In this document: one piece after another, positions 20,001-32,000 of the stretch
Position numbering within the stretch: the first letter of the stretch is position 1
Layout of the letters: every line of letters begins with the position of its first letter
The notes under the pieces: generated by a model
The model's database searches: none
What the model was told of the DNA's origin: nothing
Seen by the model: only the letters and a program-made list of their open reading frames with translations
Translations under genes and position numbers: made by a program
Source of the DNA: Tubiluchus corallicola
Lineage: Eukaryota; Priapulida; Priapulimorpha; Priapulimorphida; Tubiluchidae
Assembly: GCA_030141605.1 (NCBI GenBank)
Contig: JAQGDQ010000330.1
Span: 96,001 to 160,000 of the forward strand
DNA: 64,000 bases
Reading direction: 5' to 3'

Positions 20001-23000
20001 TGGAAGCTGTAATTTTGCGTCGGGTTTTTTCTATTGCCAAGCCGTCAGCAAGAGCCATCTACTGGATTTAAGGATAGCGTCAATGTGTTCTTGCAAAGTC
20101 CATAGCAACAACATTTGTGCGGTTGCTAAGTGTTTTGTAAAAACGCAACAAAAAACAATGGCTGACTTTAACAAAGATTTTCTCAAGGTTATGCTTTTCA
20201 GTGTGTAGCCTGCATCTCAACTTCAACGTGAATTATTTCAGCTTAGAAATAACGTAGAGCGATTAAGCTTGGTACCAAAATGATCCTCATGAAATGGAGA
20301 TTCAGGATATGTGAATAACTAGAAAAACTTAACTGCCGACTAATGTACGTTTTTGCTATGCAAGCACACATATAAGAGAGAATTACAACAATCAAAATGA
20401 CTAGTAAATGAGTGATAATTTTTGCAGTTCTAGAGACAGATAATGACAGATTTTCCCAACTTGAAGTATGCATAATTTTGTCTGTGTAGTTTTTTCTTCC
20501 TTGTAATGCATTGCATTGTTTATGTAATGTTTTGTAACTTGTAGTTGTAACTGTAATTGTATGGATTGTAAATCGTCAATAAAACTTTCTCCATCATTGT
20601 AATATTATAATAATTAACCACTGTAATTAGCAATTTTGCACATTTGCTGATTGTCACCCTTAAAAGATCATCTGTTATCTAATGTTACGCAAGCTAGGAC
20701 GTAATAGTTCAATATACCTAGCGTTTGTTTTTGTAAAACACAAAAACTTGACATTTGACCCAATTTTTCATGTATTCTACTTTCAAGCATCATATTTCAG
20801 TTTCAACTAAGCCGACTTATGGGGGGGGGTTTGCAAACACGCGCGTATAGAAAGTGTCCTACCAATACCCATGAAAAACTACTGTTCTAGTATTTATTTA
20901 ACGAGAAAACTGGATTGGTGATCTATAAACAAACCTTGGATAGCAATTTCGTGATATCCTCAAACAAATTTGAGCAGTAAAGATCACAATCGTAGTTCAA
21001 ATACAGTTCGGTTATCAGGCCCGGGATGCGCCACAGCGCCACCAGGTGTTCGAGGGCGATCTCCTTCCTCTCGTACTGGACCGACGGATTTTCCGATACA
21101 ATGATGTCCATCAATTTACTCAAGTACATCTAGAAATAGAATGTAACTGAATTGAACCGAGGAAACACAAACCATATGCACACTAGCAGAAATACACATT
21201 TCATGCCAATTCACTTATCTCTAACTAAAATTTCAAGTAACTGCTCTCAATGCTGAAATATCACAGTAGACAAGCTTACAGCTAGCTGAAATTTCAATGT
21301 TGATTAGATGACCACTAGATGAAATTTCAATGCTTATTAGGTGACCACTAGCTGAAATTTCAATGCTTATTAGATGACCACTAGCTGAAATTTCAATGCT
21401 AATTAGCTTACCTCGGGCTGAAATTTCAATGCTGATTAGCTTTCCTCTAACTGAAATTTCAATGCTGATTAGCTTACCTCTAGCTGAAATTTCAATGCTA
21501 ATTAGCTTACCTCTAGCTGAAATTTCAATGCTGATTAGCTTACTTCTAACTGAAATTTCAGTGCTGATTAGCTTACCTCTAGCTGAAATTTCAATGCTGA
21601 TTATGTGACCTCTAGCTGTAATATCAATGCTGATTAGCTTACCTCTAGCTGAAATTTCAAGCAACCTCTCAATGACTCAAAGAGAAGAAAGCAAACTTGT
21701 AGTGATGATGAAAAAAGTGTCAGCTTCTCGGAGTTAAATAACTGCAAACAGAAACAAAAAAAATCAATAAGTACTTAAGTAAAATTCAGCTAAAGTATCA
21801 ATAACAAAAGTGTTAATAAAGACTATATATTTATGATAGGTGACACAGATCTACAACTACACTTACCAGGAACAGGTGGCGACACATTTCATCTTTTACC
21901 AAAGGAAGAAGAGAGGCAAACTGTCCGATTGCATCTGCGCCTGTTTCCAAGGCAACCGTCAGCAGGCCGAGCCCCATGTGCAACATGACGTCTGTATTAT
22001 GCCTGCAATTGTACAGTCATCATCATAAAGCAATTCGTGCAAGAAAAACGATCTTCAAAATTTAGTGTAAGCTAGTTTAGCTGTAACAGTGCTTTTAAAT
22101 TAGCACAGTAAAAAATGATCAAAGCCCATGAATTACTAGTTAGGCAATTGGTCTCTGCTGCTTTTAAACATGGCTAACAGTTTTCAATGCAAAATTGAAC
22201 CCAATCTTAAACTGTAAGTCAAAACAATCTACTCTCTAAAATATTGAAAGAAAACAAACTATTTTTTCAAAAATGACTTACGTGAAAGAATTATTGCCAT
22301 ACAAACACAATCTCACGTTCACGCCACCAGTTCTGCTAGACTGTGAAAAGCTTATTAAGGAGTTACTTGCCATGTGAACACAGCCTTAATAATTCGTCTG
22401 ACTTTATAATTACTGACCTGTCAGTGGGGTTGATGAGAGTACTGACCTGTCAGTGGGGTTGATGAGAGTACTGACCTGTCAGTGGGGTTGATGAGAGTAC
22501 TGACCTGTCAGTGGGGTTGATGAGAGTACTGACCTGTCAGTGGGGTTGATGAGAGTACTGACCTGTCAGTGGGGTTGATGAGAGTACTGACCTGTCAGTG
22601 GGGTTGATGAGAGTACTGACCTGTCAGTGGGGTTGATGAGAGTACTGACCTGTCAGTGGGGTTGATGAGAGTACTGACCTGTCAGTGGGGTTGATGAGAG
22701 TACTGACCTGTCAGTGGGGTTGATGAGAGTACTGACCTGTCAGTGGGGTTGATGAGAGTACTGACCTGTCAGTGGGGTTGATGAGAGTACTGACCTGTCA
22801 GTGGGGTTGATGAGAGTACTGACCTGTCAGTGGGGTTGATGAGAGTACTGACCTGTCAGTGGGGTTGATGAGAGTACTGACCTGTCAGTGGGGTTGATGA
22901 GAGTACTGACCTGTCAGTGGGGTTGATGAGAGTACTGACCTGTCAGTGGGGTTGATGAGAGTACTGACCTGTCAGTGGGGTTGATGAGAGTACTGACCTG

Positions 23001-29000: not shown

Positions 29001-32000
29001 ACTTACCGCTGAGTCTGACTTCAAAACACGGCACTTACCTCTGAGTCTGACTTCAAAACATGGGACTTACCGCCGAGTCTGACTTCAAAACATGGCACTT
29101 ACCGCTGAGTCTGACCTCAAAACAAATTCTGAAACAAGACTGCATGATCTCACAAACGGATTCATTGGTCAGCAGGACCGCTATGGGTGATAACATCAGA
29201 GTACGAAGAACCTGTAAACAAATAAACAGTCACAAGCTATAGAATCATTAAAAACTCTAACATACCAAGAAAAATGTAAGAGAAATAACAAAATTGCATC
29301 TAAAAGCAGGGAAGAAAATACAAAAGCATTTACACATGGCAGATAATGCAGGTGATCTGGACAACGTTATATTCGTAAAGAAGACAAAGTTCACATTAAG
29401 TCTCAAAAATTTTTATTTTTTGCCAGGAGAAATCTACCTGTATGGCATAGATCTTGAAAGACTTTGGTCTTGAAAGATTGTGTCTTTCAAGATCTAGGCC
29501 ATACAAGTAGATTTCAGCTGCCGTTATTCGCATTGCTATTAATTGGTGACGTTAGTTTTGCATAAGATTCTGTGACAGGACCTACCACTTCAAGAAATTG
29601 TCTAACATTTTATTTCTGGGACAAAAAGTGTTAAAAATAAGAAAGGCAGATCAAAATAGTAGAAAAATAAAAAAGTAGTAGGACACGCGATTTGCAGTTT
29701 CACAAAATGAATTAACTCACGTGAAGAATTTTCATGAGAACGACTTCGTCGGAGCTTGGATCGGTACCAACAAATCGAGCGTGAGTGACGGCGTCGGCAA
29801 CATTTTCGACGGCAGCCGCTGAACAGGCCCCGTTCACATCTACGAAACAAGAAAACGAGTAAAATTCTCGTGTTAAGGCTGGCCACAAAAATTGTTTCTG
29901 TCTTATCTGAAGAGCTCAAAAGATGACAGCAGGGAAAGAGGAAAAATTTATTTTAAGCTTCATGAATGTTTAAAGCTGAATTGTGGAATATTTAAAATCA
30001 GTTCAAATCAAAGTTCGTTTATTTCCTACTAGTTAGTAGTAATGTTTTAAATTTTTTTCAATGCACATTTTTTCACGCTTCGTTTTTTAGTTTCGCATTA
30101 CTAAATTATCATATAATTATCTATTATTGTATCGTCTCTTTTGTGTTATGAATGTGTATGTTCTGATAATTATGGTATAAGGGGCAATACTTCTTAGCTG
30201 TTAATACACCGACTTGGCAGAAATTTGATACATTTAGCCTTGAATAATGCCAATCAGCATCATACAGAATGGCAATACTGTCCAAGAGTTAGCCATAGAA
30301 AAACATGATGCATCCTTGCCAAAAGAACGATGTTATAATAATTATTGTTTACGTTTTTAAACCGAAAAAACATGTTTTTACATGACCAGTTCAAGAAAGT
30401 ACTTTGCTGTGAAATATCTGTACCCTGAGGAAGTAATTTGCTACTGCGAAGTACAGCAGGAGCCGCTTAATAGACTCACGGTTAATAGACTCAATCGCTT
30501 GATTGACTTAAAAACGCTTCTATTCAAAAGTATATAAAAACTGTCGGTAATTGACTCAAATAACTCCACATAACTGACTCAATATTTTTGCTTCACATGC
30601 TTCAATAAGACACTTTTGTGTAATAAATGAGCTTTTATTACTCTTATATCATCTTAGTTCGCTTTTGTCCTATAATATACATAGAAACAATCATGTTAAG
30701 TACGTACAAAAAAATTATAAAATACTCAGCTAGATACGCTATAAAAAATATTACCTGAGCGATTAGACGAAAGCAGAAGTACTTTTATTGTCGGCCTAAA
30801 GTGTAAAGTAATTAGACACAGACCATGCCTAACAAAGGACTGATTTTCAATATTTTAGCTGACTAAGTTTTGCAATCCAAAACAGTATGGTCACTGCACG
30901 GTAGAACAGTTTAACTGCACATTTATGTGTTAATGTTTTTCAATATCTTGCAATGTTACATGTTCTGTACAAAACACGAAATTGCAAATAAAGTTTCATT
31001 GTTGGGTCTGATCAACTTGCTGGCCATACAGAAATTTTACTTTTTACACATTATTCGCTAATTTTGTTACAATGAGAATCTGCAAGCGAAAAAAGCCAAC
31101 GGATCTATTAAGAGGGGTTCATAAGCTTTGTAATGATCACATTTTTGTATTAAGATCATTTTTAGGTTTTGTGCATTTTTGGTAAATTTATTAAGTGTTT
31201 TATGCTGTTTTGTCAGTTTTTCATGGGGTACCTGTGGGTTTTTCTCAAGTAGTCAAATTATTTGCCTACTTAAACAAAAACAGCCATTATCTTCAAATAG
31301 CTAATGCAGTATCCAATTGGATTAATGCAAATGCTGCACAAAAACATTTTGTGCGCTAATCACATTTGTAAAAAAATCGTGTAAAATTTCACACAGCAGC
31401 AGGTCACAGTTTAGCAGGAACAACAGGTTACCATGGTGTTTGTGACACGCAGCTGCTTGTGTTCATGGTCCTGCTGCAGCTTCTAACATCACAGTGCAGA
31501 CTGAGCATTGGCAAAGCTGCCATTGCTACGGTGACCGAGTGATTTTTTGGCTGCCATCTAGGGACGATTTACAAAAGCATTACAAATCTGTAATTGCACG
31601 ACTCAGCCGTGATTCTGCTTTATAAATAGGTATGCATAAAAAAGTGTAAAAACACATCACCTATCATACTGTAAGACAGAAACTTGTTAACAGAAGACAG
31701 TGCCAGGCCAGTGACGGGTCCAGTCGTATCTTCGGATCTTATCACATCGAGAAACGGATTCAGAAATGCACTAGGTTCCAGTTCCGTTACACCTGTGAAC
31801 AAAACGCCATAGAAGAGAATAATTTTCACAATCTGAGGATCACATTTTGACATAGCAAACTTAAGAAACTTTGAAATGTGTATATAAATATACTAGAAAA
31901 AATTAGGCAAAAACAGCATGACTTTATATAGCACTGTACAATTAATGGTAAAACATATGTGTCTTGCAGGAGGCATTTAAAGGACGAAAAACACTCTTCA

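What the first reader, a model, noticed from the sequence alone, without database searches (positions are those of the whole stretch)
21215..29211. Three independent minisatellites in one gene, each built from the 5' splice junction it adjoins
The arrays after GBF1 exons 5, 7 and 9 have unrelated units (32, 29, 33 bp), but every unit is the exon's last 18-22 bases plus the donor and the first intron bases. Roughly, 22 donors times 30 positions is about 2% of the intron sequence, so three junction-spanning arrays in one gene are not expected by chance. Seeds differ in sequence and apparent age, so a recurring process is implied: slippage or repair at exon-intron junctions, or a tolerance effect because the first donor keeps working. 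I know of no described class of splice-donor minisatellites (memory only; not searched).
Basis: partly seen in the sequence, partly recalled or inferred. Interest (0 to 1): 0.92.

Follow-up and report, generated by a model that had tools for sequence, protein, structure and literature searches.

The report
Tandem copied splice sites in GBF1
In one animal gene, three introns each begin with 12 to 88 tandem copies of the junction where the preceding exon ends; only the first copy is predicted to be used in splicing, and the arrays are likely independent cases of a known but little-studied kind of repeat, called mirages in lancelets.

Summary
Confirmed. A 23-exon GBF1 model (minus strand, open frame, 1351 aa) puts arrays of 32, 29 and 33 bp exactly at the donors of exons 5, 7 and 9. 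Each unit is the exon's last 21, 22 or 18 coding bases plus 11, 7 or 15 intron bases. Those bases encode conserved protein, so the exon end was the source. Retaining 1-5 extra units gives a stop codon in 15 of 15 simulated transcripts, so the first donor must normally be used. Three of 7 intragenic minisatellites span a donor; 0.13-0.17 expected (P 2e-4 to 4e-4). PDCL3 in the same genome has one too (about 48 copies, 33 bp). Genome-wide, three-in-tandem consensus donors outnumber the backward motif 928 to 163, against 1.5 to 1 for single motifs; by distinct arrays the excess is only suggestive (15 to 4, P 0.07).

'No described class' is wrong: lancelet Adh3, globin, TnC and PGBD5 genes carry 'mirages', and human factor VII intron 7 starts with 37-bp repeats of which only the most upstream donor is used. 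This is a new member of that kind, in an unidentified animal. Whether donors are mutational hotspots remains open.

The parts
26321..29124 (-). 32-bp array at the donor of GBF1 exon 5: 88 copies, unit = last 21 exon bases + 11 intron bases
   Evidence: TRF, decomposition, donor counts
22411..23280 (-). 29-bp array at the donor of GBF1 exon 7: 30 identical copies, unit = last 22 exon bases + 7 intron bases
   Evidence: TRF, decomposition
21273..21660 (-). 33-bp array at the donor of GBF1 exon 9: 12 copies, unit = last 18 exon bases + 15 intron bases
   Evidence: TRF, decomposition
21215..21264 (-). longer decayed copy of the exon-9 end at the far side of the 33-bp array, probably a relic of an early duplication
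   Evidence: read from the sequence and last row of the 33-bp decomposition; not tested statistically
29103..29211 (-). GBF1 exon 5 (source of the 32-bp unit)
   Evidence: tblastn, exon model
23259..24205 (-). GBF1 exon 7 (source of the 29-bp unit)
   Evidence: tblastn, exon model
21643..21741 (-). GBF1 exon 9 (source of the 33-bp unit)
   Evidence: tblastn, exon model
1931..42890 (-). GBF1 exons 1-23 with their introns (the gene continues beyond the left end of the window)
   Evidence: open frame of 1351 aa over 23 exons; homologues

Best explanation
Each of the three arrays repeats the last 18-22 coding bases of a GBF1 exon plus its donor and the first 7-15 intron bases; they likely arose as three independent short tandem duplications across the 5' exon-intron junction that then grew by slippage or unequal exchange, and they are predicted to be harmless because splicing would use the first, exon-proximal donor. 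In other words they are 'mirage' minisatellites. Shown: the anatomy; the direction of copying (exon to array, because the copied bases encode conserved protein); the unrelatedness of the three seeds; and that a later donor would bring in stop codons. Inferred: the duplication and growth process, and first-donor choice, by analogy with human factor VII intron 7. If splice sites are chosen in the direction of transcription, a duplicated donor leaves the mRNA unchanged, whereas a duplicated acceptor would add bases, so donor arrays should be the tolerated ones. A moderate bias of array birth or retention toward donors is my reading of the genome-wide counts and is not proven.
For: First copy in each array is the real donor, fixed by continuity of a conserved open frame. 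Each unit matches its own donor region (scores 101-134) and nothing else among 45 GBF1 junctions (next best 16-18). 0 of 22 acceptors carry such repeats. 15 of 15 simulated uses of a later donor give a stop codon. The same anatomy in PDCL3: 26 exon + 7 intron bases, about 48 copies. Donor-motif arrays 928 against 163 backward, 724 against 97 for periods of 29 or more, against a single-motif ratio of 1.5. Factor VII precedent for use of the most upstream of repeated donors (PMC6627357 passages); lancelet mirages reported not to disturb splicing (PMC3087553 passages; PMC3902484 passages).
Against: No RNA was available, so first-donor use is untested here. Polarity from the exon is mixed: Spearman 0.30 (P 0.005) in the 32-bp array, 0.54 (P 0.09) in the 33-bp array, -0.06 in PDCL3. 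By distinct arrays the donor excess is not significant against the single-motif ratio (15 v 4, P 0.07; 12 v 4, P 0.17). A donor-motif array at L034:2424-3128 has no visible coding exon beside it. In 7 stretches not chosen for a donor motif, none of the 5 arrays whose flanks I read clearly begins at a coding donor.
Confidence: 0.72

Rival explanations
1. Donor-blind seeding: this genome makes minisatellites of about 30 bp everywhere, those that happen to span a donor survive because the first donor still works, and three in GBF1 is a chance cluster noticed because it is striking. (This shares the splicing part of the best explanation and differs only on bias.)
For: Minisatellites are dense: 17 in 128,874 bases, window included. 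By distinct arrays the donor excess over the single-motif ratio is not significant (15 v 4, P 0.07). With P 2e-4 to 4e-4 per window and about 5,400 windows, one or two such windows could arise by chance.
Against: 3 of 7 arrays in GBF1 against 0.13-0.17 expected; 3.8-fold excess of tandem over single donor motifs by match count; a further case in PDCL3, although that locus was found through a donor motif.
Confidence: 0.38
2. The rows of donors are kept because they do something, for example recruit extra U1 snRNP to strengthen splicing or guard against early polyadenylation.
For: GT is kept in 126 of 130 copies of the three arrays, and in the 32-bp array the six donor bases diverge less (0.021 per site) than the exonic (0.065) and other intronic bases (0.161).
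Against: In the 33-bp array the donor bases diverge most (0.139 against 0.065 and 0.093), and the 29-bp array has no variation to judge by. Copies are not independent, since blocks of about 1.2 kb are repeated (read).
Confidence: 0.07
3. The arrays are steps in intron gain by tandem duplication of an exon segment (AGGT model).
For: Tandem duplication of a splice motif is an accepted route of intron gain (PMC3443670 passages), proposed for lancelet globin mirages (PMC3087553 passages).
Against: The acceptors of introns 5, 7 and 9 are ordinary and do not match the repeats; the arrays fill only part of the introns.
Confidence: 0.04
4. Assembly artefact: repeat copies inflated or misplaced at exon ends.
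For: The 29-bp array has 30 identical copies, a number an assembler could get wrong.
Against: The 32-bp and PDCL3 arrays hold many distinct variant copies and the pattern recurs at unrelated loci; lancelet PGBD5 repeats at splice sites were upheld by resequencing according to PMC3902484 (passage).
Confidence: 0.04

Closest known systems
Lancelet (amphioxus) 'mirages' in Adh3, globin, TnC and PGBD5 genes (PMC3087553, abstract and passages; PMC3902484, passages; the 2002 Adh3 paper is not held)
   Same: [quoted passage not shown] Adh3 units of 10-72 bp bracket the 29-33 bp seen here.
   Different: Three in one gene, up to 88 copies. Lancelet cases also occur at acceptors (BflGb6), while 0 of 22 GBF1 acceptors have one. 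Somatic and allelic instability, reported in lancelets, could not be tested. Organism unidentified and probably not a lancelet (inference).
Human factor VII gene, intron 7, 37-bp repeats (PMC6627357, passages)
   Same: [quoted passage not shown] only the most upstream is normally used.
   Different: An unrelated single locus in human with its own unit; there first-donor use was studied in cells, here it is inferred.
Human internal tandem repeats at exon-intron boundaries in segmental duplications (PMC2812944, passages)
   Same: Minisatellites of about 30-bp units at exon-intron boundaries that affect gene structure.
   Different: There repeats vary between recent paralogues and are partly kept in exons; here they are entirely intronic after the first copy, in a conserved gene.
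Intron gain by tandem genomic duplication (PMC3443670, passages)
   Same: A short tandem duplication carrying a splice motif.
   Different: There the duplicate supplies both donor and acceptor of a new intron; here the acceptors are unrelated to the repeats.

Membership tests
mirage minisatellites (as described in lancelets) | tandem repeats whose unit spans an exon-intron boundary | tested here: met
   units of 21+11, 22+7 and 18+15 exonic+intronic bases
mirage minisatellites (as described in lancelets) | the authentic exon end lies in the terminal repeat and the gene frame is intact | tested here: met
   open frame over 23 exons with the first copy as donor
mirage minisatellites (as described in lancelets) | many units keep splice signals | tested here: met
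   GT kept in 85 of 88, 30 of 30 and 11 of 12 copies
mirage minisatellites (as described in lancelets) | regular splicing is not disturbed | not testable with these tools
   no RNA data; a later donor would give a stop codon in 15 of 15 simulations
mirage minisatellites (as described in lancelets) | length instability between alleles and in the soma | not testable with these tools
   one assembly only; 30 identical copies of the 29-bp unit point to recent turnover
mirage minisatellites (as described in lancelets) | occurrence in cephalochordates (the only lineage named in the passages read) | tested here: inconclusive
   no lancelet name seen among the 120 of 619 GBF1 relatives listed; tree joins the window to no sampled clade; no COX1 in the assembly
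intron gain by tandem duplication | the intron's acceptor derives from the duplicated unit | tested here: not met
   0 of 22 acceptor regions match the preceding 600 bp of intron; no repeat unit matches an acceptor

The most novel reading that the evidence does not exclude
5' splice junctions are genome-wide birthplaces of minisatellites in this animal: something that happens at exon ends (for example U1-linked pausing and nicking, or re-seeding from a junction copy that protein and splicing constraint keep intact) makes short tandem duplications start or persist there several times more often than elsewhere, so that on the order of a hundred or more genes carry introns that open with rows of their own donor, kept silent by first-donor choice.
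Probability: 0.35. Interest if true: 0.8.

Novelty: new member of a known kind. Interest (0 to 1): 0.55.

Why it matters
Rows of 12-88 near-identical donors are a natural test of how the spliceosome picks a 5' splice site: a first-donor rule would have to hold against up to 87 look-alikes, and the simulated lapses give stop codons. If the donor bias is real, it points to an unrecognised mutational or retention process at exon ends and a steady source of raw material for new introns and exons. It also suggests that mirages, described in lancelets, occur more widely among animals.

Tried and rejected
Hairpin-driven slippage: folding the junction units as single-stranded DNA gave z between -0.7 and 1.0 in 6 of 7 sequences and -2.1 for three units of the 29-bp array; not a common cause. 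Intron gain by duplication: acceptors unrelated. Other arrays of the window as displaced mirages: of 6, none convincing in the same orientation (best 26 for the 152-1314 unit, reached by 1 of 60 shuffled sets). Polarity (new copies born at the exon): mixed. Genome-wide GTAAGT pattern: swamped by (GTAA)n, 18,649 v 17,914 backward. MAGGTRAG: 5,752 v 458, but listed rows on C10, C18 and C19 step by 5 bp, as (AAGGT)n would; only MAGGTRAGT avoids periods 4 and 5. The acceptor counterpart, which would test the predicted donor/acceptor asymmetry, did not complete. Organism: not found by GBF1, LINE, a tree of the window and 24 chosen relatives or COX1. The donor tally failed (bad anchors) and was replaced; only its stop-codon part is used. 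L034:2424-3128 shows no coding exon beside it, so not every donor-motif array is a mirage; 26-bp periods on C29, C48, C100 and C101 may be one dispersed family (not compared). L038:3981-4553 starts about 40 bp after an OATP exon's donor (PF03137) and its unit resembles that region (shuffle P 0.0035, not corrected for the arrays and positions looked at): possible decayed mirage, not counted. The earthworm metallothionein paper (PMC12783039, passages) has intron minisatellites, but the passages do not say that they span a donor.
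Full report
What is there. TRF lists arrays at 21273-21660 (period 33), 22411-23280 (29, 100% matches) and 26321-29124 (32, with a 318-bp higher-order period). GBF1 runs on the minus strand. tblastn with Capitella and Lottia GBF1 and reading of splice sites give 23 exons, 4053 nt, 1351 aa, no stop; the 23 donors read GT except that of exon 14, which reads GC. The arrays begin inside the last bases of exons 5, 7 and 9 and run into introns 5, 7 and 9. 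The true donor of each exon, fixed by protein continuity into the next exon, lies in the first copy.

Anatomy. The unit is 21 exonic + 11 intronic nt (32-bp array), 22+7 (29-bp array) and 18+15 (33-bp array). Copies: 88, 30 and 12. GT is kept in 85 of 88, 30 of 30 and 11 of 12. The 30 copies of the 29-bp array are identical; the 32-bp array holds many variant copies, with blocks of about 1.2 kb repeated (read). Beyond the 33-bp array, 21215-21264 reads as a longer, decayed copy of the exon-9 end. The exonic part encodes residues that align with other animals' GBF1 (..FEVRLS|..INPTDR|..KFQLE|), so the exon is the source and the array the copy.

Chance. Comparing each of 23 donors and 22 acceptors with 600 bp of adjoining intron, only these three donors stand out. 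Enumerating placements for 7 intragenic arrays expects 0.13 donor-spanning ones (0.17 if only exon-sparing positions are allowed) against 3 seen; P 2.3e-4 and 4.2e-4. The 7 leave out AG and ATA runs, the AG-based row at 7427 and the rows at 9192 and 32022. The P values do not allow for the choice of a striking window.

Consequence for splicing. Splicing from the first donor gives the conserved protein. Keeping 1 to 5 further units at each of the three sites gives a stop codon in 15 of 15 simulated transcripts. So the first donor is needed although up to 87 look-alikes follow it. [quoted passage not shown] the 2006 paper it cites is not held).

Recurrence in the genome. The window is contig C1784:96001-160000 of a 343.5-Mb assembly. 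A donor-motif search led me to L032, where the PDCL3 gene (PDB phosducin-like protein 3, E 6e-69; Pfam PF02114) has an exon ending ..DERVLHMYR| followed by about 48 copies (TRF; 49 units, two of them partial) of a 33-bp unit made of its last 26 bases plus 7 intron bases; the next exon continues QQRLEELK. There the array has drifted from the coding copy (no unit identical to it). In the seven stretches obtained without regard to a donor motif (64,874 bases; 18 places asked for, 11 lay beyond the ends of short contigs) there are 7 arrays. I read flanks of 5 of them, two on one strand only; none clearly begins at a coding donor, and one is a possible decayed case. Minisatellites are dense: 17 in 128,874 bases, window included.

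Genome-wide count. The consensus MAGGTRAGT three times in tandem (periods 20-50) has 928 matches against 163 for the pattern read backwards; for periods 29-50, 724 against 97. The single motif has 16,339 against 10,783, so tandem matches exceed the single-motif ratio 3.8-fold. But matches count copies, not arrays. The 100 rows listed fall in 15 distinct arrays on contigs up to C236 (12 if four 26-bp ones are one family); the backward pattern has 4 on C1-C236. Against the single-motif ratio that is P 0.07 (0.17); against equality P 0.0096 (0.038). The consensus units of the three GBF1 arrays do not fit MAGGTRAGT, so they hardly enter these counts. An excess of donor arrays is therefore suggested, not proven, and not every donor-motif array adjoins a coding exon (L034).

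Mechanism. I commit to independent short tandem duplications across the junction, grown by slippage or unequal exchange and unseen by selection because the first donor is used. The smallest intronic share in the four units is 7 nt, enough to keep a full donor in the first copy. Donor duplications should be tolerated, acceptor duplications less so; the acceptor count that would test this did not complete. No general hairpin signal was found; polarity from the exon is mixed.

Prior art. Tandem repeats over exon-intron boundaries are known as mirages in lancelet Adh3, globins, TnC and PGBD5 (PMC3087553, abstract and passages; PMC3902484, passages; the 2002 Adh3 paper, PMC117041, is not held). PMC2812944 (passages) describes human internal tandem repeats at exon-intron boundaries; PMC3443670 (passages) reviews intron gain by tandem duplication. 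Literature searches answered. In the listings and passages that I saw there was no genome-wide count of donor-spanning arrays and no non-chordate case; most subscription papers are not held, so this is weak evidence of absence.

Organism. The 120 of 619 GBF1 relatives listed are largely vertebrates, with molluscs, annelids, arthropods, rotifers and others. In a tree of 24 of them and the window, the window joins no sampled clade with support, highest identity 63% to Capitella. No COX1 was found in the assembly. I saw no lancelet in the list; a lancelet should have matched Branchiostoma closely (inference from recalled public proteomes), so the animal is probably not a lancelet.

Noticed in passing
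window 13728 (-): The donor of GBF1 exon 14 reads GC (gcaagc): a GC-AG intron.
   Followed up: no
window 33309-40747: A 60-bp array (33309-34227) in intron 1 and similar repeats at about 40565-40747 flank a long BEL/Pao-like open frame (34722-40295, +), as if the element had inserted into the array or carries the repeats (ORF list; element type judged from the translation, not searched).
   Followed up: no
window 48948-52373 (+): Uninterrupted LINE-type reverse transcriptase frame of 1141 aa; best relatives about 30% identical.
   Followed up: partly
window 55652-57214 (+): Carboxylesterase gene exon (PF00135, E 4e-110).
   Followed up: partly
window 58797-61518: Large 31-bp array passing into 88- and 264-bp higher-order repeats; no GBF1 junction matches it convincingly.
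   Followed up: partly
L034:2424-3128; contigs C29, C48, C101: 26-bp arrays with a donor consensus in every listed unit; at L034 no coding exon beside it. Perhaps one dispersed family that mimics a donor; not compared.
   Followed up: partly
L038:3981-4553: 32-bp array starting about 40 bp after an OATP exon's donor, its unit resembling the donor region: possible decayed mirage.
   Followed up: partly
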